From positions 982,828 through 1,046,827 of the forward strand of contig JAGMUV010000026.1 of the NCBI GenBank assembly GCA_020744425.1: a DNA stretch of 64,000 nucleotides. The letters are read 5' to 3'. Below, one piece after another: positions 22,176 to 56,500 of the stretch. This stretch comes from Dactylonectria macrodidyma (lineage: Eukaryota > Ascomycota > Sordariomycetes > Hypocreales > Nectriaceae). Made by a program: the position numbers and the translations under genes. The notes beneath the pieces are model-generated. The model did no database searches and had not been told where the DNA came from. It worked only from the letters and a program-made list of their open reading frames with translations. Position 1 is the first letter of the stretch. Each line of letters begins with the position of its first letter.

Positions 22176-22177
22176 TA

Positions 22178-22338
22178 AGTTTGACTTACCGTGATGATAC
22201 TGGCCCACAGCGGCCTAACGTCAGGGGTTTTGTTGGTGGTACCTTCCCAACTTGGAACAGGATGATGCCGCTATCCGGAATTACAGACCCCAGATCCCTT
22301 CCAATCTGGATCACCATGGCCGTGGAAAAGCCAGTGGT
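22178..22338 (-). pseudogene. Exon fragment of an unidentified gene
   Basis: On the minus strand, from the hAT junction at 22338, an open frame reads TTGFSTAMVIQIGRDLGSVI and continues to a good splice donor (CACG followed by GTAAGT near 22190). It is cut on one side by the hAT element and on the other by pB1, which lies in what would be the intron. I do not recognise the protein. Confidence 0.35.
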
Positions 22339-25831: not shown

Positions 25832-25833
25832 TA

Positions 25834-27357: not shown

Positions 27358-30158
27358 CAGTGTTGCTAATAATATAAACAATACGATATTGGCAATATGG
27401 ACCCCCTCGCAATATTATTGTATTGTCAAGGGGTGCATATTGTATTACCCAATATGAACATGACTCATATTGTATTTATTGCCAAGAACCCAATATATTG
27501 GCAGTGTGACAATACATCCAATATATCCCACGTGACCCTATCACTAAACCGCTTCTGCACAAATCTCGTCACCCTGATAATCTCGTATCCCAAACCATGA
27601 CTTCAGGCACTCCAATGCTTCAATTACATCACTCCCAAGTCGATTTCGACGGTCTGTAATCGTTATCTTTGCCCCAGAGAAGAGTCGTTCAGGCTCCGCT
27701 GACATTGCAGGAATTGACAGTATATCCACGGCCATCTTGCTCAGGCTCGGGTAGGTTTTCTGCTGCGTCTCCTCTAGCCACCATGCAAGGGCGCTTGTAA
27801 AGCCATAAACCCGTTCAGAATTGCAATATCGCTCGTATTCGTCCATGACAAGTGACGGCTGCAGGTGCTTGTTCCTCCAATTCAAGAACTCGTTCGTGGT
27901 CGTCGATGGGACCTCGCAGAGAGGAAGCGGTGATTCCACAGGTTTATATTCGTTCCACAGTGTCTCAATCAACTTCTCTGAAGGCTCAACCCACTCCTTT
28001 TTCCAGTTCTCCTGGATGTAGTGCCATTTATGCGAAGGGTGGAGCACAATGGCTGCAACATACGCAGGCGATTCATCAGTAAGGCGATAGTACTTATCCA
28101 ACTTGGCCCAGCCCGAGTTATGCATCGGTGCCATCACCGGATCGTCGATACTTGCCTCCTTGCCGGCTTCGAATTGTGCCAATACGAAGTCCATCGCCAA
28201 GAGGACATTGTCGAGTGTTGCAAACGATGACTCGAGAGCCTTGGTCGTCATCTTCAGCTTCTCTAAGAAGGACTTGATCTTCTCCAAGATGATCCACTCC
28301 TCTGGAGAGAGCTCGTCTCTATCGCAATCTGCGTCCATCCATTTGTTAAAATAGCCGTCAATTGCATCTCTAAGATTCAATGCCGCCCTCAACATGGTAT
28401 ACCACGAGCTCCATCTTGTGTCATTGTCTCGCGCAAGCTTACGGTTGTGGCTGATAGCCAGAAACTTTTGGCTGCGCTGAACACTCTGTTGGATGTAAAC
28501 GACGAAGTTGTGAAGCTTGCCAAGAGGACCCTTCTTCCGCCACGCTTCAATATGCTTTAGTGTCACATTATGCAGGCCAGCATCGTCGCGTTCGAGCTTC
28601 TCATTGTCGGTGACGAAGAGGAAAGCTTTGGCGGCGAGGTTGATGATATGACCTTGGCAGCGGAGTCGGTGAACCTTGGGGTCGTATTGGATATCATATC
28701 GGCGTAGGAGGCCTGTGGGATGTTAGGGCCAATCAGTAGAAATAGTGAGTTATACTGACCAAGCGAAAGGGATCTCATCATTGTATCGTTATTGCCAGCA
28801 TTGTCCATCACGAAATATCCAAGCTTCGAAGCAAAGCCCCATTCGTCAACCACTTCCAAAATTGCCTCAGCGAGGTGAGAACCGTCATGCTCACTATCGA
28901 TGTCTTTCAACGCCAAAATATGGTGTTCGAGCTGACCGTCTTCCGTGACATAGTGACCAACTACGCCTAAGATGGCCAAAGAGTTGGGAGAAGTCCAAAG
29001 GTCGCAGTTGATGTGAACTCTTGACTTCGCCGACTGTATACGCTGCTTGACCTTCTCCTTCTGGTCTTCGTACTGCCGCATGATCCATTTCCTGATAGTC
29101 TCGTGCGTATCTGGAAGCCAAGTATCGATATCGTTATTGATGTAGGCCAAGAGGGCTCGGAACTCTGGGCATTCCACGAGCCGAAATGGGAGAGAGCAGG
29201 CTGTAATAAACCTCACGTATAATACCTCGAGCTGGTCAGGGTCGATCGAATCTCCGGATTGATCGTTGAGCCGACGGCGTTTGCGGGGATTTTCTTCTGC
29301 CACAGCACGAGCTTGTTCGAGAATCGTTCGTATCGTTGTCGCTTTAGCTGTTCGCGGGGCTCCTTTTGGCAGACCGTGGCCGTCAGGAGGAGGGTCCATA
29401 AGATGTTTTGCGGGAGCCGCAGTACCCCCAGAACAGGCATAGGTTCTGTTACAATGTTTGCACCGCCACTCTTCTTTTCCGGTCCGCTGATTGTAGTATC
29501 TCGTCTCTATCTCCTCGTCTGGCATATGGGAGAAGACCCATGATGTTCTGGGCTTGGTGGAGGAGGTTGTAGAGGCTGTGTAAGGTCGAGATTTGGACGT
29601 TTGGCTTTCGTCTAGGCCATGTAACTGCTGGCTGGAAGACTCTGAAAAGTCGACTGAAATTGACGACTCTCTTCGTTGTGACCATTTTGCAAAAGGGAGG
29701 CGCTGTTGAGGCATGGCGGTAAGTCTTGTCTAGGCTCGACAGTGATAAAGAAAATGAGCAGAGGTGACGATGGCCAGTGTCGACAGGCAACCACCGGTAG
29801 GCCCAGCTCAACAAGGTCCGTACCAATCGTACCTCCCCTGACGCGTGGCAGAAACGCGTGGTCGCGTGTTAGGTCTGATTGTCAATAAAGACGCGTGCTG
29901 AGGTAAATGCTAGCCAATAAATGCCAAGCATCCCGGTCGCTGGTATAGGGTAAGGCCTGCCCCGGCTACTGTCAACAGGCAATTTCGCCCCAGGACTGAC
30001 AACCCAATATAAATAATATATTGCCAATATGGATATCCTCATATTATATTGTCACAATATCAAAATCTTCATATCATATTGTCACAATATGAGAAAGTCT
30101 ATATCATATGGGTTATATTGCAATATACTACTTTATTGCCATATTATTAGCAACACTG
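27358..30158 (-). mobile_element. hAT transposon, copy 2 (2,801 bp, inverted)
   Basis: Same length, ends and subterminal sequence as copy 1, in the opposite orientation: every landmark maps to 52497 minus its copy 1 coordinate. The outer 8-mers are ATCAAAGA (inside pB2) and CTGTTCAG (inside the GH64 fragment) and do not match. The two copies form an inverted repeat of 2.8 kb around a 2.2-kb spacer. Confidence 0.9.
27544..29714 (-). CDS. hAT transposase, copy 2
   Basis: Exons 29714-28760 and 28712-27544, with the same 47-bp intron as copy 1, give an identical 707-residue protein: BED finger, MDNAGNNDTM and DTRWSSWYTML core motifs, and the EPERLFSG dimerisation domain. Identity with copy 1 over the whole open frame implies a very recent duplication or gene conversion between the inverted copies. 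Confidence 0.9.
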
Positions 30159-31720: not shown

Positions 31721-34700
31721 TCACCTTGCGACCCATCCCTCCATCCGAATCACAGCAGTTGCCGTATCCATGAAGCGCTCAAACGCCTTGTTGCAGCTGT
31801 TCTTAGTAAAGGCATCTGCTAGGTTGTCTTCACCGCTGATCCAACGGATCTCAAACAGCTCTCGGCGTTCGTATGACTGCCGAAGTGCCATTATATCGAC
31901 CATCAGCCGTTTCTCTTGCGTTGTTCCGAGCTTTACCAGGCACTCGTATAGTGAGTACGAATCGGTGCATGCAATGGTGGGTACTGCTGGGAGATCCAGG
32001 CGTTCTAGCACTTGATTGATGGTGTTTGTAATAACGTAGGCCATATCCACGCCTGCCACCATGCCATAGACCTCTGAAGCCAAGGAACTACGGGTAATGC
32101 GTTTGCACTTTGTGGAGCTGTAATGCACAAGGTTGCCAGTTAGCGTAAAGGTATCGTCGCTAACTGCTGTTTCGTTGCCTAGGATGATCGCAAATCCAAG
32201 CTGAGATGTCAGGTCAGGGTTATTTGCTAGAGACCCGTCTACGAAGACGAACAGCTTCGCAGTTGACAGGTCGATGGGCAGGTACCGGATGCCGCGGTCT
32301 TGGTGGTCTATTTGCCATTGCAGACGCTGATTCAGCGCCTTCGCCTGCTCGAGAGTTGGCTCTTGGTGCTGCGCTGCAGCAGACAGGTCGTAGCAGGCCT
32401 CGGGTTGGCAGATGGATGCAATGTATGCACCGCGCGCACGCTGTTCGGTGTACTGGGCCTTGATGGAAGCAGCGGTTGATTCAGGGGTGATCTCTAGGAG
32501 CTGCAGTTTTTCGCCTTGCCCCTTTTGCCGTAGTTGTATGATACCGGTTGCTGCACACAGTGTGATGGTCCCGCCGTTGAAGGCAAGCGGTTTGTCCGGT
32601 TGTAGGCGTTCCTTGGGCTTTGCGGTAAAGCTGGCTGCCTGCAAGGCAGTATCTTCATGTCGGTCAAACGCTTCATCTGACACGCCGATGGTGTCGTCCG
32701 TTTGCATGCCAACGATGCCGAAGTGCTGGTTTTCCTTGGTAGTTATAAGCAGGCACGGGTCGTACGTAGATGTTTCCATCTGGAGCTTTTCTCTATGGTG
32801 GGCGTAGTACGTGGCCCACCAGTAAGTGCCTGCCTCGGCGATGCCGTACAGCGGTTTCACCACCTTCATGATGGTGTTGTCCGGGTAGTGGTGCTGTATC
32901 TGTGTCGGCAGCTTGGCGAGGATGGTGCGGTTCAGCGGCATAGCCGCCTGGACATACGCCTGCGTGATGTCTCGTAGCCATAGGTGCTGGCCACGAAGTA
33001 GCAGAGATGGTGCAAGTGCGAGGATCAACCGTTGGCTGGACCGTTGAATTGTAGGTGCTTGCGTTAAAATAGTGCGTTTTCCGTCGTCTGCGAAGCCCTG
33101 GATGACGAGGCGTGACTTCTCGTAGGGCTGTGAGGTGCCCTTGCCTTTGAGTTCGTTGACGATCCGGGAGCGGAAGATGCGGGTGCCCGAGTGCTGTTTC
33201 GGATCGAATGGAACGAACTCAAATACGCCTCTGCTGATGAGGGCGTCGATCTCCTTGTACGTGGATGCTACAAACGGCTCTCCAGGAGCTGTTATAATGC
33301 CTTCAGCACGCAATATAGCAACCAAGGCCTGATCGTCCTGTTCCTTCGACGATAGGTACGCTACCGTACACACGATGGGCAAGCTGACGTCCGTTTCGCT
33401 GATGTATACGGAGTGCTGTTGTGGCGGTTCGTCCTGTTCCACGGGGGCAAGTGGGTGTTTTCTGGGACGCCCGCGTCTCCGTCTTTGGGGAATTGGGTCT
33501 TGTGAGGTCGCCTGCTGCGGGAGATGTGACTTCCCGGGTCGACCTGGGCCACGTCTGGGCTGGGCTTGGGCTTGGGGGGGGGTATCGGGCGTAGTAGAAA
33601 CGATGATCTCGTCGTGGATAGTGTTATTTTCGGCTGCTATTACTGCTGACGTAGGTGATGTAGTAAGCACTTGGTCTTCGGAATCATCGTGCCATGGCTT
33701 GACGGCAGTAGAGCGGAAGTCTCGTGGGCCGTGTGGCAGTTGCAGAGTGCAAGTCTGGCCAGCAGTTGCAATCAGGGTAAATGGGCCTTGCCATCCCTTG
33801 TTCTCGCGCCACACGCGGACCTGTGATTGCAGTGGTAGGCTGATCGTAGGGACCATGTCAGGCCCGTTGCGGGCGGCCAGCGCTTCCTGGACCTTGCGTT
33901 TGGCTTGTAGGTGCTGCAGTTCCTTCATTGCTTTGTGAATTGCTGCAGCCCTCCGCACGTTAGATGGTGAGGGTGGTGAATCCTCGGTTATCCGTGGGTA
34001 GGAGCCAAAAACCAACAGTGTAGGCACAAGGCCGTTAGGGCCAGCAGTGTCATTGATAGCTTTGACGGCCATCTGGAGGGCGCTCTCTGGTAACACGGTA
34101 TTGTCTGCTGATCTGATGATATAGTAGGCTCGCCGTAGTGCAGGGTGGGCTCGTTCGATCTTGCCAATGCTGTTATGTGCCTCAATAGGCACTTCCTTGA
34201 CGCTGATTCCTGCAGCTCTTGCTGCCGCCTTGAATTCTGCGGCGTGGAAGTTGGTGCCGGCGTCGCAAACGATCCAGTCAGGGGGTCCTTGGTAAACGTC
34301 TATCCAGCATAGGCGCAGTGCGTCCCACGTGTCTTGTGCTGATAGACTGCGGAGGAAACGGGCTGCCGTAAAGGATGTAGCTGTATCCACGACATGTAAC
34401 ACTTTGCCGTCGTCTAGGGTGACGACGTCAACCACAATCTCGTAGTTGAACTCGTAGTCGTCGCGCAATGTGAATTTGAAGCGGTTAGGCGGTGTCCCGT
34501 GTAGCTGACATTGGCTGCAGATGTCCGTGAGGGCTCTAATAGCGTTGATTTCCACGTCGTGGCCTGCTTTATATAGCAGGTCATATAGGCGTTGCACGGA
34601 TGGATGGCCACATCGGCGGTGTACTCGACGTAGCTCGGCCTCTGTCAGGTGGTTGAACGCCAGTGGTATCTCTGGCTGTAATAGCATCCATGGGTGGCCC

Positions 34701-36898
34701 CATTTGCGGATGACTGGTACAGTAAGTGCCCCTTTTCGAAGGACATTGGCCAGGTTATCAAATGTGATGCCCATGCGGTCCATGTCTGCTAAGCAGAGCA
34801 GAAACGGCGTATCTGCTGGCACCACGTGAAACACCATCTGACCAAGCGGTGTAGGCACGTCGATCGTGCCTGTGGAGTAGGTAGGGGGCCCGGCTCCGAA
34901 GGTGATCTTGGAGCCTGCTGCTGTCTGGTTCAATGCTAGGCTTGGGAGCTGTTTTTGCAGTGCTATGAACTGCTGGTTGCCAGCAGTAGAAAGACCGGAA
35001 GCTCCTGTGTCTGGCAATATCCCCTGAAAAATGTCTCTGTACCGGGCCTGCAGTGTAAATGCATATGCGGATTCCGTCGTATATGTGGGAGCAGTCGGGA
35101 GACGGCCTGTGAAGGCGTGGTACATTGCCTGATTAGCTAGTTGGTTAGCGAGGGCGGGGCCATCAATCGTCGTTGTCGATGTGAAGTAGCTGGTGAAGAA
35201 CTGTTGGGAGTCTTCCCACGCAGCATCCTCTTCGCTGCTAGGCTCGTTGTTCCTGCTGTCTGCGAGTTCCTGGAAGTACTGCTGTACGAGATCAGGGCTG
35301 CCGCTGCGTGACAGCGTTACAGTTGGTTCAGGGCCTTCGTGCCACGTTAAAAACGCCTTGTAGGAGGATTGCGAAGTGCTGGTGGCTGCCCTGTTGGTCC
35401 TGAATTTCCGGTAGGCCTGTGTTCGTTCGTCTGCTGTATGCCTTGTGGACCAGCAGTCGGGCTTGTTGCAGACGTAACACTTCTTGCTCTGGGAGCTGGG
35501 ATTAGAGTCGCGGTTGCCGTACTTCGTATCTCTCCCTTGGCCACGGAACGTTCGGTCCGTCCAGTACTGTACTGGGTTGCTGGTGGGTTCTTGAGGGAGC
35601 GTTGCAGCGGTATGGAAATGCTGCGTTGACGCTGCTAGCTTAATAGAACCGCGGATCTGTTGGATAACGCCCTCGCAATCTACTGCAGGTCGGTATAGCG
35701 CGTTGGCGCACTCGGGTTGGCCGTAGCAGGCGTTGATGATTTGCTCCTTGAGAGCAATTCTGCTGCCACTGACCGTAGGTAGTGCGCTGTGGAGTAATGT
35801 TATCCTTTCCAGTAGTAACTCGAAGACTTCGCTCTTTGACTTTGCTGGGTGCTCGGTTATCATCTTCGCAAGTGTAATAGACCGCCACTCTGACAGGTAC
35901 GTCTGCTGCATCTCTTCGGGCTCGAAGTGCTGTAACGTCTGTTGTACCATGTGTGTGAACTGCATTACTGGGCGGGTCCGGGCGAGGTTCGAGAAGTAAA
36001 AGCGTAATGCCCGTCCCTTCAGCATCAGGGAGAATACATGTGAAAATTGCGTCTGCGGAATTGAAACTTTACCGCAGAAGTCCCGGAAAATCAGCAGCTT
36101 GTTCTCTAACACGTCATATATGTCGCCACCGTATTTGTTGTCGTCGGTGTACATCTTAGAGAGGTCTGTCACCTGCCGTGAGGTAGGGACATCTGGCTCC
36201 GTGGGTGTGTCAGTTGCTGTTAACGGTGCTGTATGTCGTGGGGTGTCATACTGCAGCTGCTGCTGCTGCTGGTGATGTATAGCTGGGGCTGGAGGTGGAG
36301 TGGTATTCTCGGGGCTTGGCAACTGCAGTTGCAGTGGCCGTACTGGGGCTGTGACTGCTGCCTTCGCAAGGACTGCTGGGTCCTCCTTGAGGTGTTCCCT
36401 GAATCTGGGGATCTTGTCGAGGTTGTTGAGGAACCTGGGGTATTTGCTAGCAGTTTGTTCGATCTCTAGGTCTGTCCATACGTGGTACTGCTGTAAAGCG
36501 GTTGCCACGTTGATGGCGTGGGCCTGGCGGTTGGTGCCCATCCATATACCTTGTTCTAGCATGAACGACCTTAGTATCTTGCAGGCTTTCTTGTTGACCC
36601 GGAAGTGCTGTTCTTCAAACTCTTCGAAGTCATCATAGGCTCGGGCCCATAGGTAACGGCCGTACAAGCCCTGGCGCTTATAGGCTGTTACATTGAAGAG
36701 AATGAAGGAGCCGATGTGCTGTTCCGAAGGTGGGTTACTTTCATCGTCCAGATCTAGCAGGTTGAGTTTGCCCCAAAGTGCTGGATCAATGAAGTCCTGG
36801 TATTCCTCGGGAATAGGCGTTCCCCTTGACGTCCCCTTGAGGGTATCGCCACTGCTGTTGTCGCTGCTCTGGGAGCTGTCTGGCGTCTCTGATGTCAT
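31721..36898 (-). CDS. Copia Gag-Pol polyprotein
   Basis: A single frame of 1,725 residues. The Gag part ends with a zinc knuckle of CCCH form (CYVCNKPDCWSTRH) near residue 475. The protease has the active site DTGAS near 630. Integrase follows, with the HHCC finger closing at CSQCQLHG (~795), then VVDVVTLDD, WIVCDAGTN and a glutamate in NSIGKIERAH. The reverse transcriptase has SRLVIQGF, LRDITQAYVQA and, in place of the usual YVDD, MQTDDTIGV near 1400. RNase H begins at FVFVDGSLAN near 1556. The order protease-integrase-RT-RNase H defines copia elements. Nothing is broken, and all products would come from this one polyprotein. The leader between the 5' LTR and the ATG is about 470 bp. Confidence 0.92.
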   Translation of the reverse strand: MTSETPDSSQSSDNSSGDTLKGTSRGTPIPEEYQDFIDPALWGKLNLLDLDDESNPPSEQHIGSFILFNVTAYKRQGLYGRYLWARAYDDFEEFEEQHFRVNKKACKILRSFMLEQGIWMGTNRQAHAINVATALQQYHVWTDLEIEQTASKYPRFLNNLDKIPRFREHLKEDPAVLAKAAVTAPVRPLQLQLPSPENTTPPPAPAIHHQQQQQLQYDTPRHTAPLTATDTPTEPDVPTSRQVTDLSKMYTDDNKYGGDIYDVLENKLLIFRDFCGKVSIPQTQFSHVFSLMLKGRALRFYFSNLARTRPVMQFTHMVQQTLQHFEPEEMQQTYLSEWRSITLAKMITEHPAKSKSEVFELLLERITLLHSALPTVSGSRIALKEQIINACYGQPECANALYRPAVDCEGVIQQIRGSIKLAASTQHFHTAATLPQEPTSNPVQYWTDRTFRGQGRDTKYGNRDSNPSSQSKKCYVCNKPDCWSTRHTADERTQAYRKFRTNRAATSTSQSSYKAFLTWHEGPEPTVTLSRSGSPDLVQQYFQELADSRNNEPSSEEDAAWEDSQQFFTSYFTSTTTIDGPALANQLANQAMYHAFTGRLPTAPTYTTESAYAFTLQARYRDIFQGILPDTGASGLSTAGNQQFIALQKQLPSLALNQTAAGSKITFGAGPPTYSTGTIDVPTPLGQMVFHVVPADTPFLLCLADMDRMGITFDNLANVLRKGALTVPVIRKWGHPWMLLQPEIPLAFNHLTEAELRRVHRRCGHPSVQRLYDLLYKAGHDVEINAIRALTDICSQCQLHGTPPNRFKFTLRDDYEFNYEIVVDVVTLDDGKVLHVVDTATSFTAARFLRSLSAQDTWDALRLCWIDVYQGPPDWIVCDAGTNFHAAEFKAAARAAGISVKEVPIEAHNSIGKIERAHPALRRAYYIIRSADNTVLPESALQMAVKAINDTAGPNGLVPTLLVFGSYPRITEDSPPSPSNVRRAAAIHKAMKELQHLQAKRKVQEALAARNGPDMVPTISLPLQSQVRVWRENKGWQGPFTLIATAGQTCTLQLPHGPRDFRSTAVKPWHDDSEDQVLTTSPTSAVIAAENNTIHDEIIVSTTPDTPPQAQAQPRRGPGRPGKSHLPQQATSQDPIPQRRRRGRPRKHPLAPVEQDEPPQQHSVYISETDVSLPIVCTVAYLSSKEQDDQALVAILRAEGIITAPGEPFVASTYKEIDALISRGVFEFVPFDPKQHSGTRIFRSRIVNELKGKGTSQPYEKSRLVIQGFADDGKRTILTQAPTIQRSSQRLILALAPSLLLRGQHLWLRDITQAYVQAAMPLNRTILAKLPTQIQHHYPDNTIMKVVKPLYGIAEAGTYWWATYYAHHREKLQMETSTYDPCLLITTKENQHFGIVGMQTDDTIGVSDEAFDRHEDTALQAASFTAKPKERLQPDKPLAFNGGTITLCAATGIIQLRQKGQGEKLQLLEITPESTAASIKAQYTEQRARGAYIASICQPEACYDLSAAAQHQEPTLEQAKALNQRLQWQIDHQDRGIRYLPIDLSTAKLFVFVDGSLANNPDLTSQLGFAIILGNETAVSDDTFTLTGNLVHYSSTKCKRITRSSLASEVYGMVAGVDMAYVITNTINQVLERLDLPAVPTIACTDSYSLYECLVKLGTTQEKRLMVDIMALRQSYERRELFEIRWISGEDNLADAFTKNSCNKAFERFMDTATAVIRMEGWVAR

Positions 36899-37371
36899 CT
36901 TAGGTATTGCTTGCTAGCGTACCTTATGAAACCTTATGAAACTGATGATGTGATGGTGTGGCTGGCTAGCCCTGATCGGGCTAATGCTGCCCCTTATTGC
37001 TTTGTTGTCAGGGTCTCCGGGATTCCCACGTCCTTGGGTGACGATGGTACTCCGTAGTCTTGTCGATTGTGATCGGGTGGCTGCTGTTGCTGTGGTTATA
37101 TAACCGTTGAAGCAGCTGTTGTCGTGCGTGATGGACGCGCCTAGCTGGGCCTTGGAAGGGGAGCTAGGATGAGGGTGCCGGTGATCTAGCTGGGCCAGTG
37201 ACGGGGAGCTAGATGAACCGGTTTCCTGGTAGCACAGTAGCTACGATAGTGAGGGGCTGTTGGCGCGTAATGGGCCGAAGCCAGCTATATCGTAACTGCT
37301 GTCTCTTCTGATGAACCTTGCTGATCTGCGGTATTCTGAGTGGTGGACCTGGTAGGTTAACCACTGATCAG

Positions 37372-38185: not shown

Positions 38186-38209
38186 TTACCTCAGCAAGCT
38201 CAGACCATT
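38186..38209 (+). repeat. Left terminal inverted repeat of the DUF6589 element
   Basis: 24 bp starting TTACCTCAGC, one mismatch (A for G) to the right repeat. A foldback partner lies at 38267-38284, beginning AATAGCCTGAG. Confidence 0.7.
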
Positions 38210-38437
38210 TGTGGGTCTGCGGAATGGACTATACCTAATCGGTAGGTCACATGCGGTCCTCGACCAAATAGCCTGAGGATTCTGTCAACGTTTTTGGGCG
38301 TGTGCGGAGAAACTTCATACCAAACAGAAGACCATGCTTAAAACCCATTTTCATCCGCAACCACACTCTGCCCCGTTGATTAAATATACTTTTTCGATTC
38401 ATCTACTGCTATTCCACCGTTGATTGAATTTTGGGCC

Positions 38438-41167
38438 ATGCCGGTGCGAAATCAGCGTCGCCAGAGTGCGCGGTTGAACCCGCCCGCCCTTCCACCCGCA
38501 CCAAGTCCTCAGCATAATGCTTCTTCAAACACACCCAATGCACCTCGTCAAAAAGTAAGAGGGTCTCAAAGACGCAGCAAGGCGCGGAGAGTAGACGAGA
38601 TATGCCAATTCATGAGGAAAAAAGACATTACATTACGAGAATTTATCCATGTCTACGCCACGACTCAAGGGTCTGGTGGTTATGGGGAACGCCCTGCCAC
38701 GCGCGCCAAACGGCTTGCGGAGGCTATCTACGGTCAGCCAGAGGTCTTGGACGCGCTGCGAGATCATCCTGCTTCTCATGCGGCAGGGATAATCACTGCC
38801 AAGGCCCTGAGGAAGGAAATGAAGGCACTGGAAGAAGCCGGAGATATGTTTAGTGCCTACCGAGTTGACCGTGGCCAAGAAAAAACTTCACATGTTGGCG
38901 TGCCGCGGGAGGAACAACCTGAAGAGAGCCAGAAACTCGAGGATTACGAGCGCATGCTTGGCGACATGCAGTTCGGCAAGATGTACGAGCAAGTCAACAC
39001 TCATGCTCCTCTTCTAGGTGGACTTCTTAATGGCCTCATGGCGCCCAAGATCGAGCGAAAAGACCGAGCACCACGAGATCCTGCTAAATTCAACCACAGG
39101 ATTGCGATCATCACCTCAATTCTCTGCTACTCTCGAGCCTCGGACGGGAGCAACAAATTCCCCCGTGTCTTTGGTGCCTTTCTGCATTCTAACGGCGTGA
39201 AACGACGTGTTCTGGATCTATTTCACCAGTTTGGGCTCTGCGAGGGCTATAAAGGGGTCCACAAGCACCTCGAAACCGTGGCAGAACAAGCAAAGGCATC
39301 ATCACTGTCTCTAAGCACAGACGTCGGCTGATGGTAAGTAGGGGACAGTCCGTCGATATGGCCAGCAGCTGGATGCTTGCGTTGTGTACGACAATTTCGA
39401 TTATCGAGAAGGTGTCAAGCACCAGCTCATTTCAACCCATGCAGAAATGCGCTCTGTGACAACGGGAAAGGTTTTCAGAGGCGCCGACATCCCCTCTGGC
39501 GGATTGAGGAAGTCGATGCTGCACCGCGAGGTTCCACTTACAATAGAGGATCTCCTATACTCTCCTGGTGCGGCAATATATGACGAGACTGCGGCCGAGA
39601 TTGACACCTACTCCATAGCCGAGGCAATTCGAACAGCATATCCAAAATCGGTCAAATCCATATTCTCTAGCTCCGACATCCCTTTCCCCGTTATGCCAAC
39701 TATCGAGCTGCTCGAGGTTCGACGAACCGACAGCAAGACACTTGGGCCGATTCTCTTTAACGAAGGTACTTTGGATGGCTCCTACGAGGTTGTGGAGAGT
39801 ATCTACAAGCATCAGTTCCAGCTGGATGATGCGGCATTCGACAACCGTCTGTTCTTGGCGTTTGGCGATCAGAAAACGTCTGCACTCATCCGATCTATGC
39901 AAGCTGAACAGGTGGACGCATCTGCAGCATATGATTCCAAAGACTGGCTGATAGGAGTTGCCGCTCTCTTTCACCTGCGCATGAATTTCCTCTGGCTCAT
40001 GCAAAAGACACATTATGGCAACATAGAGCAGCAAGACGCTTCAACCCTCTACCACAACATCAACTTTTGGGGACGCAAGAGTATTCCAGCGGACCGTGCA
40101 GCCTTTCAAGTTCTGGAAGAGCTGGTACTTCATAGTTTCGACGCTCGGGTCGTTGGACTACTGTATATCCGCCTCGAGCAGCGCGGCATCGATACCTCAG
40201 AACAAGAGGAGGTCGACAAGGCTATTCAGAAGATGAATGCCAAAGGTTTCATGGAGGTAGTGGAAGATATTCGCAAATCGACTTTTGAACCGCAAGCCTG
40301 GCGACCATCCAAGGAGAAGTACGCCAACAACACGGTTGATGAGGAGTTCCTCAGTCATGCTCGATATCTTCAGCAGATGATTGTCTACAAGACCTTGAAG
40401 TACGGTATCAAGAACGGAGACATAGGACTCATCGATCGAGTCATTGGCGTCTGCTGCTTCTACTTCGAGGGAACCGGACAGTCAAACTACGCATTTGAGA
40501 TGCTCTACCTGAAGCGGCTCACCAGCACCAAAGCTTGTGACAAGGAGCTTCGGCGCGCGATACTCTCGAATAGCCTCGTCAATCCGCATGGTCGTCGGGA
40601 CACCTGGCAGGAAGTTGATCGTAGTCTTGAATATCTGAACCTGGAGCTGAAGAGAGAACTGTGGGCCCGTCGAACGTCGACTTTTGGATTGGATGCTCTG
40701 TTCAAGACTACCTCGTTGACAGCGGAATATACTGTTTGCCTACGCAAGGCGATAGAGAAGGCATTTGCCCGGAATGACGACTTCACACATTCCGTGCCCT
40801 CTCCGGTGGATGATATCCATACGTTGGCATTTGAGTTGGCATGCGACTCGATTAAATTTTATGATGGCGGCCGGCAGGGAAGACACCACGCGCCAGACAT
40901 ACATACGATCGGGGTCGAAAGAGTAGCAACAAAGAAACTGGAAGTGTTCAATGCAAAAGTCATGAGAGATGAAGATCGAATAATAGTACCACCTTATGAA
41001 AGGAGAAGAGCCACGGCCGATTTGGATCCTAGCAGCGATTCGATGGCGATTTTGGTATGTACATACTCATGCCGTACCAACTTCGGGCTAATATATGTCA
41101 CCAGCCCTTGGAAGACAGAGATGAAGCCCGCGAATGGGGTTTGCCCTCAGATGCCGAGCTTGACTAA
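38438..41167 (+). CDS. DUF6589-domain protein (candidate transposase of the element)
   Basis: The first exon starts at the ATG at 38438 (MPVRNQRRQSARL) and is open to about 39330. It is Pro/Arg-rich, then helical (MRKKDITLREFIHVYATT). The second part is open from at least 39345 to 41054, and a last exon at 41105-41167 follows a clear intron (GTATGT...CACCAG). The second part carries the DUF6589 landmarks VYDNFDYREGVKHQL, MRSVTTGKVFRGADIP, FLAFGDQKTSALIRSMQ and DWLIGVAALFHLRMNFLWLMQKTHYG. The join between the two large parts near 39260-39345 is unresolved: the frames differ, and either an intron ending at GGGGACAG or a frameshift is possible. The family is of unknown function. Conserved acidic residues in YDNFD and FGDQ could be catalytic, but that is speculation. 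Its stop lies 5 bp from the helicase stop. Confidence 0.7.
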
Positions 41168-41172
41168 CCCGC

Positions 41173-43719
41173 TTATAATATCCACTCTCTGTGGTCATAA
41201 CGCCTATTCTTCCCCTTCTCCCTGCGAGGACTTCGCCTTGCATTAGGATCCAGAACACCGAGGACGACCCCTTTTGCCATTTCTCCTTCCCGCCGACTTG
41301 ATGCGGGGCGTTTCGACAACTGATCGCCATTGATTACACTGGGCAACTCATTCTCAAAAACGGTAAATATGGCTGAGGAAGAATCCTTGCTTGTCGATGC
41401 TATCGACCTGTCGATAGATGTGGATGGCGAGTTGGCTGGTGCCTGGATGATTGTTGGAGTGGACGGATCAGGAGAGAACGAGACTGGAGTCTCTCTGGCC
41501 TTGGCAATGATTCGCTCTAGTGACGAAGCGTACTCTTCTCGCCCACGCAAGAATGACGCTCTCTGTTCCTGATCAAGAGCCTTCTGAGTCTCCGCTTCGA
41601 CATCGACAGATGCTCTTCTCTTTCGAGACACTTGCCCTTCCGGAGCAAGACGAGCTCGTCCTTCCAACGACGCTCGATGGATTGGAACTTGAGCTGCAGC
41701 AACCGTTCCTAGCCTGCTCCCTCCGGGCCAGTTCCTCACTACATAGGATTTGATATCATTGAACTCTTTAAAGAGTTCATCGGAATGCTCTTTCAGCCAA
41801 CTCGACTTCGCAAACTCTTCCAACTCAGCGGCCGTGCGGATATAAGCGTACTCTGTCGACATTGATATCCACTCGCCCTTCTGCGTGAATAGCCGCACGG
41901 AGAGCTCGGGCTTCACCATCTGATGAGCCGAATTGACAACGTTGTCTCCCCAGAGCATCAGGCGGTCATAAAACGCACCTGACGCTGTCCCGGCCTGGGG
42001 CCTCCTAAGACTAGGAGCAATATCCCACGGGAAAGGCATCGTTCGCGTCAGGCTGGGGTTGCAAACATTACAACACTCGTCCGGCTCAGGGGCAGGTGAC
42101 TTGGATGCCGGGTCTGACAAGCTCTCTTGCAGCCAATCCATCAGAATTCGTCGCAGACATGCGGATCGATTGACAAGATTGAACAGGGCCGGACTGTCAC
42201 TGTACAAGTCCGTTCGGCGCTCTCTGTCTGTTTTACGCCTGCGCTGCTCTTCTGGCACGTCATAGTCAATGACATCTACAGCAACATCCGATTCATCGTC
42301 TGGAATGTCACCCTCCACCCCTAGTTCAGCGGAGCATGACCGAGCTAGTCGGCTTGTGCCGGAAGACCGCTTCGAAGACGACGGCCTCTGACTGCTGGGA
42401 AAGATTGCCGCTCTTGTCGATGCAATCCTGTCACCTACAGCCCAGCTTTCCACCAGGAAAATAGCCTCTCCCTTGATTCCGCTCATCCTAGCTGCACGAC
42501 CAAACCGTTGGATAAGGACGCACAAGAGCCGCTCCAGAGGGAAGCCATATTGGACAACTCGGATGACATCCGAGAGATCTACTCCCGTTCCCAATGATTC
42601 CGTTGCCACCACAATTCGAATCTTCGAATCTTCCTTGGAGAACTCGTCGTATATGGCATTCTTGTCATTCAGAGAGGTGTGTGAGTGGTAGACTCCGATG
42701 ATCTGTCGGCAGTCACGGTCTCTAATGGCCCCGGCCGACAGTTTGTGCAGCCAATCGCGCAAGCATTCTGCACATTTTTGTATATCGTATCGTGAATCTA
42801 TGAAAATTACCGTCTTCGGGACTTTCTCTGGCGTTGGCGACCCATTCGTTATGGCGTCTTGAAGAACGAAGAAGAGGGTGGTGAACCTCTTCGTCGTTCG
42901 TGGCTCGATAGTCTCCACGATTAACTTTATCTCCGGCCTGTCGACGGAAGTTCGGTAAAACTCGCAGCTGGCTTGGAAGCCTGTCATTTTCCTCGCAGTA
43001 TCCAATGTCGCCTGGTCCAAAGTGGCAGAACAACCAAACCAAGGGATATGCGCTCCTAATCTTCGACGAAGGAGAGAGAGCTGTGCATACTGTGGACGGA
43101 TACCACTTCCCCATAGTGCCACCAAGTGGAGTTCATCCACAGCCACAACTGAGACACGCTTTTTGAAGGACGGGTTGCTTGCTATTGGCCGAAACCAACC
43201 AGCTGCGACCTCTGGGCCCATGATGAGATGAGTATACAAACCCGTCTCAATCTCTGGGACCAATGCATCAGTCTTGTCCGTCTTGGCATTGATAAACACG
43301 GGTCTCGCCCCAGGGAGTCTCTGGATCTTGATGCACTGCTCCTGTCCAATTCGATCGAGAGGGATGATGATAAGGCCGATGCTACCTCGACAAAACAACG
43401 GTGCTGCCTGGAATATGATACTCTTGCCGAAGGATGTCTTGGCAGAGAGGAGTAGATCCTCCTTCGTGAAGACTAAATGCCATATTGCATCTATCTGCTT
43501 CTGACGAGGCTCGAATGGATAAAGGTGGCGCTGCAAGCCTGCGCAAATGATGCCCTTCTGCACTTCCTCGGGTGCGTGTCTTGCCTTCACGACCAGGTCC
43601 TGTATAGCCAGCATACTCGTAGTGTTATTGGCATCATGGATGAGACATCCCGTGCTGTTTGTGGTCCTTCGGCGCCGTCTTCGAATGCTTGCACTGTTCC
43701 GCATGGATAATACGAACAC
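41173..43719 (-). CDS. RecQ-like DEAD/DEAH-box (SF2) helicase
   Basis: A single frame of 848 residues. Helicase motifs are complete and in order: a Q-like motif PRQKQIDAIW (71-80), Walker A AKTSFGKS (93-100), Walker B VDELH (194-198), FGCSATLD (228-235), IFIDSR (305-310), VATESLGTGVDLSD (371-384) and QRFGRAARM (404-412). The order and spacing resemble RecQ-family helicases, with DELH in place of DEAH/DEVH. A Cys cluster (CCNVCNP) lies near residue 553, where RecQ proteins have a zinc-binding region. The Ser-rich C-terminal 250 residues show no domain. In the element it may unwind DNA during excision or copying; a host repair role is the alternative. The frame is undamaged. Confidence 0.8.
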   Translation of the reverse strand: MFVLSMRNSASIRRRRRRTTNSTGCLIHDANNTTSMLAIQDLVVKARHAPEEVQKGIICAGLQRHLYPFEPRQKQIDAIWHLVFTKEDLLLSAKTSFGKSIIFQAAPLFCRGSIGLIIIPLDRIGQEQCIKIQRLPGARPVFINAKTDKTDALVPEIETGLYTHLIMGPEVAAGWFRPIASNPSFKKRVSVVAVDELHLVALWGSGIRPQYAQLSLLRRRLGAHIPWFGCSATLDQATLDTARKMTGFQASCEFYRTSVDRPEIKLIVETIEPRTTKRFTTLFFVLQDAITNGSPTPEKVPKTVIFIDSRYDIQKCAECLRDWLHKLSAGAIRDRDCRQIIGVYHSHTSLNDKNAIYDEFSKEDSKIRIVVATESLGTGVDLSDVIRVVQYGFPLERLLCVLIQRFGRAARMSGIKGEAIFLVESWAVGDRIASTRAAIFPSSQRPSSSKRSSGTSRLARSCSAELGVEGDIPDDESDVAVDVIDYDVPEEQRRRKTDRERRTDLYSDSPALFNLVNRSACLRRILMDWLQESLSDPASKSPAPEPDECCNVCNPSLTRTMPFPWDIAPSLRRPQAGTASGAFYDRLMLWGDNVVNSAHQMVKPELSVRLFTQKGEWISMSTEYAYIRTAAELEEFAKSSWLKEHSDELFKEFNDIKSYVVRNWPGGSRLGTVAAAQVPIHRASLEGRARLAPEGQVSRKRRASVDVEAETQKALDQEQRASFLRGREEYASSLERIIAKARETPVSFSPDPSTPTIIQAPANSPSTSIDRSIASTSKDSSSAIFTVFENELPSVINGDQLSKRPASSRREGEMAKGVVLGVLDPNARRSPRREKGKNRRYDHREWIL

Positions 43720-44091
43720 TACAGGTGCTCAATAACACCATAGACGCGTAAATCCCGACCAAGGAAACTTTAGATGGCATCTGATGACATTTCACTGACC
43801 TTGGATAGTGTTTCTTCAGGCTCCTTTTGTCTTAATGGTAGGAATGGTAGTCGGAGAACAATTCTGACGCGATCTGGTGCACAACATATTAGCGTTTTCC
43901 ACAAGGCACAGGCATTGGGGGTGTAAAAAAAATCGATTTCTAGATAAAATATACCTTGCTGCACAGCCCAGTGAAATTGAGGGCAAATACAATGTGTTTT
44001 GGTGCGGTTATTGATGGATACAAAAAGTTGTGATTTTCCAGAATCGCGAAAAACACATACAAATTGTCGACCAGTCAGTGGCCGCGTTGGA

Positions 44092-44202
44092 CAGCAAGCT
44101 CAGGCTATTTACTCGAGGAGTCGTAAAAGTAACGTGATCTGTTGCGCTAGTCCTAATATCGCTAGACTCCTCTGAGTCAATGGCCTGAGCTTGCTGAGGT
44201 AA
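44092..44202 (-). repeat. Right terminal repeat of the DUF6589 element, with foldback
   Basis: The terminal 24 bp (44179-44202) is the inverse of the left end. The core occurs again in opposite orientation at 44092-44109 (CAGCAAGCTCAGGCTATT), so the right 111 bp forms an 18-bp stem with one mismatch and a ~70-base loop. Confidence 0.7.
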
Positions 44203-49648: not shown

Positions 49649-50558
49649 CTTGGTGGGTAGAGCCTAGTGTGGATATCGAGGTTTCGGAAACGGTCACAGA
49701 ACTGACGCGATGAGCAAACACTCACGAAGTCGCGGCGTTATCTGTTAGATGCGCACTGGTTACCTTATAGTAATTTCAGGGTAGGGTGAGTTCAGTATAT
49801 CGCGATTCACAGGATAGGATTGATTGAAGATTGCAGTGTTCTTGCTCGTTCTGTTCGTGCGGGGGCGGCGGTCTTCTGACGTGTTCGGACAACAAACCGC
49901 TAGTATCGCTTCCTGCAATGCATATTGACGTCAATCTAAAATCGTCTTACCTCAGCAAGCTCAGGCCATTGTGGCTCGTGCCTACGGCAGTTACCTCAGT
50001 GCCTCAGGCCACACTGTGAAGGCCGCGGCTATGCGCGCTTACTAAAGCACGCTAACCCGATCGGGCAATGCCTTCACAGAGGGCCTGAGCGCTTTTGGCC
50101 AAATTTTGTGTGGCGTTGTCGTTCGTCGCTTCCTAATTCGCGCAACGCGGTACCATTCGCCACCAACACCGATTACGCCAAAGATACCCTCAACTGTCCT
50201 TGGAAATTGCAGTTGGTTCTGCGTATAAGTCTCTGCTACTGACAGTGCTACATACCCCTTTACGTTGCCCCGATCCTGAGTCATTAACCTCGACATTGGC
50301 AAAGGGGTCTCTTCAAGGAGTTCCCACAATGGGGCGATTGACTTGAGACTGTGAAACAGCTAGCAGGATCCCGGTGCCAAAGCGGCTATCGACCTTGTGG
50401 TGCACACGACGAGTTGATTGGGCCCTCTAGGACAAGAGCACGAACGAGGTTGAGTGTGAGTTGGGTAAAATGATTGTTTACGAGTAAAGAAAGAGACGCC
50501 TGAGGAAAACTCCGACTTAAGCTATTTACACAATATTCATAAAGTGAGACTATTCATT
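49649..50558. other. Intergenic region with a stray transposon end and an ORF fragment
   Basis: Contains the extra DUF6589-type terminal repeat at 49947-49970 (annotated separately). A minus-strand frame at 50042-50329 (95 residues, VEGIFGVIGVGGEWYRVARI) looks like the conserved end of a fungal accessory protein, but it has no start context and no partner exon. I treat it as a fragment. Confidence 0.4.
49947..49970 (+). repeat. Extra copy of the DUF6589-element terminal repeat
   Basis: The 24 bases are identical to the right terminal repeat of the element at 38186-44202 but in plus orientation. A weaker copy (TTACCTCAGTGCCTCAGGCC) follows at 49991, and a weak inverse (GGCCTGAGCGCTTTTG) at about 50082. 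No second element end was found to its right, so this may be the remnant of another copy. Confidence 0.7.
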
Positions 50559-53500
50559 CAGCCGAAGGCTGACTCTACATTAAGGGTTTGGTGCAGACAG
50601 GGGTCAATAAGTTTCCCGGGTTCTGATTGGCCAGCAATTTGTATGGATGGCCGCAAAACGTGCAACAACTGGACAATGGCTGCTAAGAAGTGGGCCTAGC
50701 TTTCTGCGGCTCGCAGCACCCCTGGTTTGTTTACTTGCGCTTCGCTTGACATGGAAATTTCATTGAAACAACGCGTCTTGATGCGTGCTTCATTAAGTAA
50801 TGAGTCCTAAGTCTACTCCTCAAGGGCTTCAAGATGACTTGATTTCCATCGTCTGTGCCCGCTGTGGCGAGGAGAAACCGGCGGGTGACTTCGTCAGTAA
50901 ACGGAAATCTGCTGGGAAAACCAAAAACTGCCTCGGCTGTCGTAGTCAGTGCAATTCTCATGTCAGCTCTGTCTCCCCACTCACTCTGTAAGACCATAAG
51001 AGCATTCAACACTAACTGAATAAAGAATTCCAGATCCAGAAGCGCGATCCAAACATTGAGGAACCTCGCCGTCCGTTCTTCCTCAGCTGAAAGACCTGCC
51101 CGGAAGCGAACTGACGGAGAAGCTGGCTTATCCCCTGCTAAGGACAGGTCTGGAACCCAGCCCACGTCGCCAGAGAAGCTACAACAACTTCATGCAGCTA
51201 GGAGGTTATTCAGAGAGTCAATCAGCCAGCCTCACGTAGTGCTAGGGACGCCAATTCCACCAACCCAACAAAGCTCGCGGCTCTTCCGGGAAATGGCTCC
51301 CTCACCTCCCGCGCAGCCAACGACCCATCCAACCGCCTCACATTCTGATCCATCTACTGTCCGAAGCAGCACAACTAGTGTAGATTACTCTTACTTGGCT
51401 GCTAGGTTCCACAGGGCCGGGAAAGACTCGCAAGATGATCCTTCCAAGGCCGGGGCGAGGGCCAAGCTGGCCGCTGTCCAGCGCGACCATCGTTCACGAC
51501 GCCGTGCAGGGGAGACTGTGTCACTGACTCCCACAATATCTCAACTCGGCGTCTTTGATGGGTCTGAGGGTCCTGGAGAAGGTATCCTTGTGCTGTCGTC
51601 CTGGTAAATTGTTCAGGCTAACCACGGAGCGTAGATGGGAGTCGAGATCGACTACAACCGAGTTGGTTTCAAGACGGGAATGGGATAACCAAGGGAGGCA
51701 ATGACAGGGGACATTTCTCTGAATCTGATATTGACGCCGAGGACTATTTCAACTTACTCCTTTCGCCTGCTCGACCACAGAGGTACCTCAAACAATTAGG
51801 GGTGGAGTGTGATTCCGATCCAGGGGACGAAGACGAGAACGACAATAATAATTCCGTGGATGGAAGCCCTCTTCGCCATCGCTTGCCGCAGCCTTCCGCA
51901 CAGCCAAGGCGTGGTCGCCGTGGTCCTGCCCCTGGTACAGGAGGGCGGCCGAGACAATCTCAAAGGCAAACTCCATCGTCGAGGCCGCCACGACGGTATC
52001 GGAGCCCAGTGATGATTCCACCTGAAGAATCGGCGGTATTTCATGCACAAGACCCGGTGTGGAATGGAGACCTTGAGGCTTGCGCCTTGACTGGTCGCGA
52101 CAAGGAAATCCTCCGCGAGTTCTGGACAGAGCTGGACAATGACCAAATGCAGTTTTGCAGTCGATGCCAAGAGAGTTGGTTCCAGATGAAGATCGATTGC
52201 GATGGCATTTGTGCGCGTTGTTATCGGAGGGATGAGAAGCGCCAGCCCGACGAGCCATATTTCTTCTCTGCGGACAATCAGCTCGACTTTGGCCCTGTGC
52301 CGGGCCGGTTGCCCCAGCTCACGCCTACCGAAGAGTCGTTGATTGCTCGTGTTCACGTCCACGTGAACATTATGCTTGTGCGAGGGCAGCAGTACAAGTA
52401 TCGAGGGCACGTAATTCACTTTCTCCGGGAGGTTGGCTTAGTGTACAACCAGCTCCCGCTTTTGCCGCAAGAGTTGAACACTGTGTTACTACGTCCTGCG
52501 AATACGTCGTCCCACGCAAATCTTAGCCGGCAATTCACCCGCCAGTTCCGCGTGCGCCGCCAGCCGGTTGTCATATGGCTAGACTACCTCCGCCGCCATC
52601 ATCCCGGCTATCGATGCGTCGCCATCGACGAAGAGCGGCTGAATCAATTGCCCCAAGATGGTAATGTCCTGGATGCTATCCCCCAGAGTCAGGTGGAGGC
52701 TGCCGATGTTGGACCCGACTCACCCGAGGAAGATCAGGAGGCAGAGCCTGACCTGGAGGACGAGGCTGCGGTGCCGGACCTGTTGGCTAAGGACACGGAG
52801 CTCGATGCTCTGCGGTCTATTCTCTCCGGAGAATCAGGCGCTGATTCAGGGCTTTCCACAAGCTTCCAGGCGCAGGCACAACACGAGCTGCAGCTCCCGA
52901 ATATACGACACACACCCATTAATGAGTTCAATCGCTCTCATGCCCTACTCTCCTTGGCATTTCCCTGCCTCTTTCCTGACGGTAGAGCCGACTTTGTTGA
53001 ACCCCGATTGCGCTCCATTGATTACAAGGATTACGTCGAGCACGCGATGCGCTGGCACGACGGGCGTTTTGCACGCCACCCGACCTTCCGCTTCGTCGCC
53101 TTCAACACGCTAATGCGGTCACAAGCACGTTCGCGGTCCAGATTCTTCGTGAAGCAACATGATGGGAGACAGCAGCCGCTGACGCGAGAGCAACTTATTC
53201 AGGCGCTCGAACACAGCGAGGACCCCGAGGCGCAGGCGCTGATCAACTCGATCACAAGGCATGCGGTGTCTATTCGCGGTACGCGTCCATTCTGGAACAA
53301 AAAGAGGCAGGACCTCGAGGCCTACGCCTATAACCTTGGTTGTCCTGGTGCATTCATCACGTTTAGCCCGGCAGATTTACACTGGCGGAGTCTCTACCAG
53401 CACATGCCCCAGTATGACGACTGGCTAGCCGCCACCGAGCCGGAGAGGATGGCTCTATCGCGCCGCCTATTGCGGCAGAACCCTCACATTGCTGCTTTCC

Positions 53501-56500
53501 ACTTCTACCGCCGATACTGCCTCTTTCGGGATATCGTGCTAAGCAAGAAGTTTAGCATCACGGATTACTGGGATCGTTATGAATGGCAAGGGCGTGGGAG
53601 TCCACACAACCACGGCCTGTACTGGATGGAAAATTGCCCCGGAGCCGACATAGAGGACGAAGCCGCTCGTGATGTTTTTGCACGCACGTGAGGATTCCAC
53701 GTCACTGCCATTAACCCCGAGCCGAGTAGGACTATGCCTCAGGGTGAGGGTAATCCGCTGAGCGTAGATCCCCTAAGCATAGAGATGACATTCCTGCGGC
53801 TCTCGCAAATTGTCAACCGTTGCCAGCGCCACAAGTGCAACACCACGTACTGCTTGCGTGTGAGGAAGAGAACCGGTGACATCGCGAGGGATATGGAGGG
53901 CGCTGCTGCAGACATCGAGGCGGCCAACGCGGCCAATCCAGAGAGGGAGTGTCGTTTTGACTTCCCTCGTGCCTTGCGGGAGCTGGCTGCAGTTATCAGG
54001 AAGGAAGGTAGGTCGTACCACATCTTCGAGGCGGCGCGGAACGACAGCCTCATGAACCACTTCAATCCTGCTATCATCCTAGGCTGGCTAGCCAATATCG
54101 ACATATCTCCTTGCACCAGCTTACAGGCGGTTATTACGTACGCTGCGAAGTATTGCAGCAAATCTGAGAAGAAGACTGAGCCTTACTGCAAACTTGCAGA
54201 TCAGGTCTTGCCGCACACGGCACACCTCCAGCCCTTATTATCCTTCTCCTCTCGCCTTATGAATAAGCTGATTGCCGAGAGGGATTACTCGGCGCAGGAG
54301 ATTTCCCACCTTCTGCTTAACATCCCTCTGCAGGAAGGGACACGGATGGTCGTCTCCGTCGACTGCCGTCCGTTGGAGCAACATGCACGTTCGTATCGCG
54401 TCGACGAAGATGTCAATGAGACTATCGGCAGCTACAGAAAATATCTGGAGCGAAATGACCAGCATGAGGATGTAGCCTACCTCGAGTACCTGCAATCGTA
54501 CAATCTCAAGACGTGGAGGAGACTCGCTGCTAACGCGAAGCAAAGGGTCCTAGCTTACTTCCCTCGATACAAGTCCATAGAGGCTTCTCCCCAGTTTAAC
54601 GACTTCTGCCGTGTTAAATTGATGATGGTTCATCCACATCGCTCTCCACAAGAGTTGCTCGTGGTGGGCGGGCAGCGGTTCGATTCCTTCGCGACTGCGT
54701 ACAAGTGCTGCACAGAGCACCATGATGCCCACGCGGACGATCATTATGGGGAGCCAGATAACAAAGAATTGAGGGCAGAGGACGATGAATTTGAGCTTGA
54801 GCTCCATGAGGAGCCCATTGTGGAGGAGGACTGGCATGAACTCGCCCGCATGCTGCCTGACCGCCCGCTGGAGGAAGAGGACATCGACATCCTCGGCCGC
54901 CGAGATATCGACATCGATTATGATTGGGCCTCCCACGTTGGACGGTATACCGACGACGGCATTCTCAGCGGCGACTACTGGAAGCAACGCAAAGCGGAAA
55001 ACCCCTGGAATCTCGACGTGGACCATCAGCCCTTGGAAGCTCGCGATTCCCTAAATCGAGATCAGCGCCTAGTGTACGACACGGTGATGGGCCACTTCCT
55101 GACAGGGGTTCCTTCCCAGTTGTTACTCCATGTAGATGGGGAGGCGGCACTGGCAAGTCATACCTCATCAACCTGCTCTCCGCGCACCTTCAAGCCGCGA
55201 CGGGCGGGAGAGGGACACCCGTCTGGCGTGCCGCGCCCACGGGCGTCGCGGGAAATCAGATTTCGGGCACTACCTTGCATTCCCTGTTGCACCTGCCAAT
55301 TAATAAGGACTTCAAGCCTCTCTCAGCCATTGATAAGGCTCAGCTCCAGAAGAAGCTTAAAGATATCAAGTATCTGATCATTGATGAGAAGAGCATGCTT
55401 GGACTGCGTCAGCTATCTTGGATCGATGACCGTCTCCGAGAGGCGTTCCCGAATAAGAACGAAGAGTTCTTTAGCGGCCTGAACATCCTGTTGGTTGGTG
55501 ACTTCTTTCAGCTTCCCCCTGTGCTGCAGAAGCCGCTTTATTACGATAAAGAGGTTCAGGGAGTAGAGATCAAGGGCAGAAACGCATATAGGCGATTCGA
55601 TAAATCGGTCTTCTTGAAAGTTGTCCAGCGGCAGCGTGGCGACGATCAGGAGGCATTCCGCCTAGCTCTCGGGGAATTGCGACTGCTTCAACTATCTGTG
55701 GAGTCCTGGAAGCTCCTTTCCAGCCGCGTACAGGCAAAACTAGACGATCAAGAGGTCGCAAGGTTTGTCAACGCCTTACGAGTATACGCCACTAAAGATA
55801 GGGTGAACGAATATAACCACTATCACCTCGACCGCCTCAGCCGGCCAGTCATCCAGGTCATGGCTAAGAACGTCGGCCCCGGCGCGGCTGCTGCACCTGA
55901 TGACAAGGCGGGCAACCTTGCGAAGCAGATCCCAATATGCATTGGCTCCCGTCTGATGCTGACGTCCAACCTTTGGCAGCCAGTTGGCCTCTGCAACGGC
56001 GCTCGCGGCACAGTTTACGATATCGGCTGGGCACCTGGGGCCGACCCCATCCAAGACCCTCCCTGTGTTATCATGATGGAGTTTGACAAATACAGCGGAC
56101 CGGTATTCCTGACCACCGTTGATGGCAGGAAGGTTGTGCCGATTCTCCCAGTGGAGAGGGACTTCCTCATGGGAGCCATTCTCTGCGCTCGCACCCAGTT
56201 TCCCCTGATCGTATGCTACGCAATTACCGTGCACAAGTCACAAAGCATCACCGAAGACATGGTAGTTACAGATCTGTCCTGCCGGGACTTTCAGACTAGT
56301 TTAGGCTACGTGGCTGTCTCGCGTGAAAACGCTCAAGGGTCTGATGTTGGATGCACCATTTGATCGTAATCACTTGGTCTACGGGTCTCCCCCGGATGGC
56401 ATGAAGATGAAGATGAGGGATCAGGAGCTTAGGAAACGGCAGGTGCTCACACGGAATCCGTACATGTCACATAATACCAAGAATGGCCATGGCAATGGAT

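What the first reader, a model, noticed from the sequence alone, without database searches (positions are those of the whole stretch)
38186..44202. A DUF6589 gene and a RecQ-like helicase inside foldback inverted repeats: a possible undescribed transposon type
Seen: 24-bp inverted repeats with one mismatch enclose exactly two genes. The genes converge with only 5 bp between stop codons (41167 and 41173), and each end carries an inverted internal copy of the terminal core. Known: DUF6589 is a fungal family without assigned function, and RecQ-like helicases are not normally part of cut-and-paste elements. Inference: the pair forms one mobile unit in which DUF6589 supplies transposase or end-binding activity and the helicase unwinds DNA. 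The foldback ends could be structured origins or binding sites. Possible TA target bases flank the repeats. The helicase frame looks intact; the DUF6589 frame has one unresolved join.
Basis: partly seen in the sequence, partly recalled or inferred. Interest (0 to 1): 0.88.

Follow-up and report, generated by a model that had tools for sequence, protein, structure and literature searches.

The report
Fungal jumping gene with its own helicase
A stretch of fungal DNA is one copy of a mobile element that carries a probable cut-and-paste enzyme from a family with no assigned function together with a DNA-unwinding enzyme, and its ends can fold into hairpins whose pairing is kept where the sequence has changed.

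Summary
The 24-bp inverted repeats belong to an element family with full-length relatives and short derivatives (MITEs) in this 77-Mb genome, which contig lengths and protein names identify as Dactylonectria macrodidyma. Of 30 distinct insertion sites examined, 21 carry a perfect 8-bp (17) or 9-bp (4) target duplication, and one 6-kb copy sits in a MITE whose uninterrupted relative shows the empty site. So the target is 8-9 bp, not TA. The window copy itself has no target duplication. DUF6589 and the RecQ-like helicase lie tail to tail at 17 of 22 DUF6589 loci found; the other five are partial matches. Both genes show purifying selection. The DUF6589 model is nearest to RNase H-fold transposases (P element, Hermes), though not decisively, so DUF6589 is most likely the transposase. 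Most intact ends can fold into a hairpin whose stem covaries between subfamilies. Helicase-carrying transposons are known (AcademH, KolobokH), so the type is not wholly new. I could not read the AcademH paper or compare sequences with it, and target length (8-9 bp here, 9-10 bp reported) does not match cleanly. I call it a new variant of a known kind.

The parts
38186..38209 (+). left terminal inverted repeat, TTACCTCAGCAAGCTCAGACCATT
38199..38277 (+). left-end foldback: CTCAGAC at 38199 and inverted GCCTGAG at 38271; stem imperfect, weakest of the 13 ends folded
   Evidence: (z -1.14)
38438..39295 (+). transposase (DUF6589 gene) exon 1, 286 aa; no Pfam match above its cut-off
39296..39341 (+). 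inferred 46-nt GC-AG intron
39342..41054 (+). transposase exon 2, 571 aa, DUF6589 (PF20231); D17, D176 and E386 of this exon are the proposed catalytic residues
41055..41104 (+). inferred 50-nt GT-AG intron; homologous proteins P0002, P0003, P0007 continue across it
41105..41167 (+). transposase exon 3, 20 aa and stop
41173..43704 (-). RecQ-like SF2 helicase, 843 aa, DEAD and Helicase_C; no RecQ zinc-binding, RQC or HRDC match in Pfam
44092..44196 (-). right-end hairpin (strongest of the 13 ends folded)
   Evidence: (z -7.95)
44179..44202 (-). right terminal inverted repeat

Best explanation
The region is one copy of a family of DNA transposons with terminal inverted repeats. DUF6589 is a DDE (RNase H-fold) transposase with a helical insertion, of the general P-element/hAT type. 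It recognises ends made of a 5'-TTACCTCAG tip followed by a foldback arm pair, cuts the element out and inserts it with an 8-bp (some subfamilies 9-bp) staggered cut. The helicase encoded tail to tail is a second working part of the element. I infer that it opens or remodels the hairpin-forming ends, or helps repair and copying at the donor site. Shown here: mobility, target duplication, a paralogous empty site, a conserved gene pair, purifying selection on both genes, foldback ends with covarying stems. Inferred from a predicted fold: that DUF6589 is the transposase. Inferred only: excision as the route, which residues are catalytic, and what the helicase does.
Confidence: 0.86

Rival explanations
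1. It is simply an AcademH transposon (Kojima 2020), a described lineage with a helicase, and DUF6589 is the Pfam name of its transposase.
For: AcademH encodes a helicase and is reported as low-copy in Ascomycota, Basidiomycota and Mucoromycota (PMC10799480, passages). Its 9-10 bp duplications overlap the 9 bp of four sites here.
Against: 17 of 21 perfect duplications here are 8 bp. No held paper names DUF6589, and the one paper with the string PF20231 is on optics. The AcademH paper is not held and no Academ transposase sequence was available to compare.
Confidence: 0.6
2. A host or subtelomeric helicase gene pair, like fungal telomere-linked RecQ helicases, that only happens to lie between repeats.
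For: The window ends at its contig end, and subtelomeric RecQ-like helicases are known in fungi.
Against: Copies at many places with exact ends, target duplications and an empty site. Helicase matches away from DUF6589 are short fragments or three long open frames at 25-26% identity, which I take for host helicases. No telomere repeat array at the contig end.
Confidence: 0.03
3. The helicase is passenger cargo captured by a P/hAT-like element and plays no part in transposition; the covarying hairpins come from neutral quasi-palindrome correction.
For: MITEs without either gene have moved, so the helicase gene is not needed in cis. The helicase C-terminal part evolves faster (dN/dS 0.30). Quasi-palindrome correction is a recalled neutral mechanism.
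Against: The pair is kept tail to tail at all 17 loci that have both genes, down to 34% DUF6589 identity; helicase residues 1-440 have dN/dS 0.12.
Confidence: 0.2

Closest known systems
AcademH (Academ superfamily, Kojima 2020, Mob DNA 11:15; paper not held, seen only through citing papers)
   Same: DDE transposon that encodes a helicase; found in fungi; duplications of similar length
   Different: reported duplications 9-10 bp, here mostly 8; no sequence comparison was possible
KolobokH (fungal Kolobok transposons with a RecQ helicase; PMC9587614, passages)
   Same: DDE transposase plus RecQ helicase in fungi; the same passage names a red-alga Kolobok with a RecQ helicase on the complementary strand, as here
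   Different: in KolobokH the helicase is described as downstream of the transposase domain, here it is a separate convergent gene; Kolobok's TTAA target (recalled) is not seen here
P element and hAT (Hermes) transposases
   Same: nearest solved folds; 8-bp target duplication (hAT usually 8 bp, PMC12730594, passages; P element 8 bp recalled)
   Different: no sequence match found; those elements carry no helicase (recalled)
Fungal telomere-linked RecQ helicases
   Same: RecQ-like helicase without detected zinc-binding and RQC domains (Colletotrichum case, passages)
   Different: here it sits in a TIR transposon beside DUF6589, at many genomic places

Membership tests
TIR DNA transposon | terminal inverted repeats shared by many copies | tested here: met
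   72+69 hits against 5+3 control
TIR DNA transposon | target site duplication of fixed length | tested here: met
   21 of 30 distinct sites, 8 bp (17) or 9 bp (4); 9 without, the window copy among them
TIR DNA transposon | empty site | tested here: met
   paralogous empty site of one relative
TIR DNA transposon | DDE/RNase H-fold transposase | tested here: inconclusive
   predicted fold nearest P element and Hermes, Foldseek E only 0.016; conserved D, D, E
AcademH | encodes a helicase beside the transposase | tested here: met
AcademH | 9 or 10 bp target duplication (as cited in PMC10045372) | tested here: not met
   17 sites with 8 bp, 4 with 9 bp; at 4 sites a neighbouring A lets the repeat be read one base longer
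AcademH | transposase sequence related to Academ transposases | not testable with these tools
   no Academ sequence or profile on hand; papers not held
KolobokH | TTAA target duplication (recalled) | tested here: not met
   duplications are 8-9 bp of varied sequence
[quoted passage not shown]
   helicase is a separate convergent gene
hAT | hAT sequence signatures such as Dimer_Tnp_hAT | tested here: not met
   Pfam shows only DUF6589; hAT ORFs elsewhere in the window do match
hAT | hAT transposase fold | tested here: inconclusive
P element | P-element fold | tested here: inconclusive

The most novel reading that the evidence does not exclude
DUF6589 elements form a transposon superfamily of their own whose ends are recognised as extruded DNA hairpins: selection keeps the base pairing of each end rather than its sequence, and the element brings its own RecQ-like helicase to open or process these hairpins before the DDE transposase cuts. 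This would be a eukaryotic DDE system working on structured ends.
Probability: 0.22. Interest if true: 0.78.

Novelty: new variant of a known kind. Interest (0 to 1): 0.52.

Why it matters
It gives a likely function, transposase, to the unassigned family DUF6589 and attaches it to exact ends, an 8-9 bp target and non-autonomous partners, so the family can be annotated and assayed. Covarying hairpin ends next to an element-encoded helicase make a testable question: why do some DNA transposons carry a helicase? DUF6589 exon 2 is 89% identical to the Eremomyces and Stachybotrys proteins, close to the 92% between copies inside this genome. That suggests horizontal transfer, which I did not test against host genes.

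Tried and rejected
TA target: rejected, since the TA lies inside the TIR and other copies show 8-9 bp duplications. Window copy made by exchange between two elements: I searched for the reciprocal flank combinations; the three matches read in detail lack the TIR, and two further one-mismatch matches were not read. Its missing duplication is unexplained. Relatives in viral contigs and in bacterial/archaeal genomes: pattern matches but no confirmed locus. Profile of DUF6589 against solved structures: two unrelated rows at E 0.12 and 0.2. Second structure job, for the N-terminal part: unusable (pLDDT 45, pTM 0.29). Literature: DUF6589 is in no held paper; the only PF20231 string is in an optics paper. 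Five further searches listed no paper whose title or shown abstract start describes this element; I saw those listings and the passages, no whole paper. One search lists seven papers naming AcademH. Arm-pairing test: the 26-end version gave own 25.5 against 20.0, but its ends are not independent; one search tried four groupings (13 ends p 5e-5; 8 classes p 2.5e-4; 8 classes with the window ends p 3e-4; 5 classes p 0.009), and I rely on the smaller ones. Some ends were chosen to represent a class. Rows set aside: from the dN/dS, the C20 transposase (stops in the matched stretch), the C19b helicase (split), C50 (partial, not fetched) and C56 and C77 (many stops); from the duplication count, L045, L054 and L055 (ends not paired or not resolved). 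Copies of one site were counted once (L028/L056/L057/L060; L032/L038; L011/L050/L048/L049/L033-L034). The hit list is capped, so further sites with mismatched ends exist and were not examined; the loci are lower bounds by the tool's own note.

Full report
What is there. The window is the last 64 kb of contig C19 of a 77.3-Mb fungal assembly. Proteins from contigs with the lengths of C19 and C32 are named Dactylonectria macrodidyma (P0021 and P0022). The plus-strand gene is three exons by inference: 38438-39295, 39342-41054, 41105-41167. The first join is a 46-nt intron with GC-AG ends, supported by the annotated proteins of two other copies, while gene models in other species place it differently. 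The second is a 50-nt GT-AG intron across which homologous proteins continue. Exon 2 matches DUF6589 at E 5e-66. The minus-strand gene, 43704-41173, is a DEAD/Helicase_C protein whose nearest solved relatives are WRN and other RecQ helicases. Pfam found no RecQ zinc-binding, RQC or HRDC domain.

It is mobile. The 18-bp end is found 72 plus 69 times in the genome with up to two mismatches, against 5 plus 3 for the reversed pattern. Many hits pair up as inverted ends, about 330 to 830 bp apart (MITEs) or 5 to 6 kb apart; others are 1.2 to 4.1, 6.9, 10.6 and 13.3 kb apart. I examined 30 distinct insertion sites with both ends, chosen from the listed hits and from the DUF6589/helicase loci. Seventeen have a perfect 8-bp duplication, four a perfect 9-bp one, and nine none. 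The nine include the window copy; one of them (L065) has a 9-bp repeat with one mismatch and one (L052) only 6 bp. One 6039-bp copy on C32 lies inside a 693-bp MITE of the same family. Its two flanks joined with one copy of ATTTGCTC give 693 bp, 98.1% identical to an intact 693-bp MITE elsewhere and identical over the junction. The C32 copy is 99.6% identical to the C20 copy and 99.7% to the C19:852979 copy over about 6 kb, so movement was recent.

Both genes belong to it. tblastn with each protein gives 36 DUF6589 and 47 helicase matches, which I grouped by place into 22 DUF6589 loci. Seventeen have a helicase match next to them in tail-to-tail orientation. The five without are partial matches: C19:478804, C20:1022586, C19:37845, C25:492891 and C8:502115. 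Identity of these loci to the window DUF6589 runs from 34 to 92%. Between the window copy and the C32 or C19:852979 copy, DUF6589 exon 2 has dN/dS 0.10 and 0.09. The helicase has 0.20 against C32 and C20; against C32 it is 0.12 for residues 1-440 and 0.30 for the rest. This rests on equal contig length, not on a map.

The ends. Of 14 elements scanned, 9 have at both ends a CTCAGRC core near position 14 and an inverted core at positions 68-98. C77 and the 10.6-kb C8 copy have it at one end, and C56, L032 and L038 at neither; C77 and C56 are mutated copies, and with one mismatch C77 shows it at its other end too. The C4, C8/C15 and C25 types have stem sequences different from the window type, yet mostly pair within themselves. 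Pairing of each end's own arms beyond the shared core scored 12.75 against 7.70 for arms swapped between ends (8 classes, permutation p 2.5e-4; 5 classes p 0.009). Folding as single-stranded DNA gave z from -7.95 to -1.14 for 13 ends, with 8 of 13 at or below -2.5; 7 interior control stretches gave -1.54 to +2.05. The window's own left end is the weakest. These data favour selection on pairing, but neutral correction of quasi-palindromes could also produce them, and the classes are related to each other.

Decay. The C77 copy has 23.7% G+C against 50.9% for the window copy, and 1685 of 2054 substitutions from the window to the C77 copy are C to T or G to A, with a raised TA/AT ratio (1.48 against 0.58) and a lowered (CA+TG)/(AC+GT) ratio (0.38 against 1.33): the mark of repeat-induced point mutation. 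The window copy shows no such mark.

Against known kinds. [quoted passage not shown] AcademH encodes a helicase and makes 9-10 bp duplications (PMC10045372, passages), and is reported at low copy number in Ascomycota, Basidiomycota and Mucoromycota (PMC10799480, passages). I expect that a curator would place this element in or near AcademH, but the defining paper is not held, no Academ sequence was available, and the measured target length is mostly 8 bp. I therefore do not file it as AcademH; it works like one. That DUF6589 proteins also occur in animals is my recollection and comes from no call.

How it probably works. Shown: insertion with an 8-9 bp target duplication and movement of short relatives that carry neither gene. 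Inferred from the fold: DUF6589 cuts and joins the ends. Inferred only: the helicase acts on the hairpin-forming ends or on donor repair.

Noticed in passing
window 49947-50100: A lone left end of the same family (MITE type, TTACCTCAGCAAGCTCAGG) with a second left end of another subfamily (TTACCTCAGTGCCTCAGG) inside it at 49991; no matching right ends were found downstream in the window.
   Followed up: partly
window 20651-30158: Large inverted duplication: 22339-25146 is 99.9% identical to 30158-27353 and holds a hAT transposase ORF in each arm; a second piece 20651-22178 pairs with 27357-25831 at 97.4%.
   Followed up: no
window 31721-36913: Uninterrupted ORF of 1725-1730 aa, Copia-type retrotransposon by RVT_2 (rve only weak), left of the element.
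   Followed up: no
window 51802-53691: Helitron-type ORF (Helitron_like_N plus DUF6570) near the contig end.
   Followed up: no
L033/L034 (C8:944290-954914): A 10.6-kb copy with the same ends has a Helitron-like PIF1-type helicase ORF and a zinc-finger ORF inside (domain names by eye); its outer flanks recur at C46, C36 and C8:1475379 around 1.2-1.3 kb elements.
   Followed up: partly
C4:1212781 (L032) and C22:66236 (L038): Two elements of different length (2.9 and 4.1 kb) share the same outer flanks in opposite orientation, without a target duplication.
   Followed up: no
P0016 (Metarhizium anisopliae): A DUF6589 protein whose 970-aa gene model also carries PF02171 (Piwi; name recalled): fusion or annotation error.
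   Followed up: no
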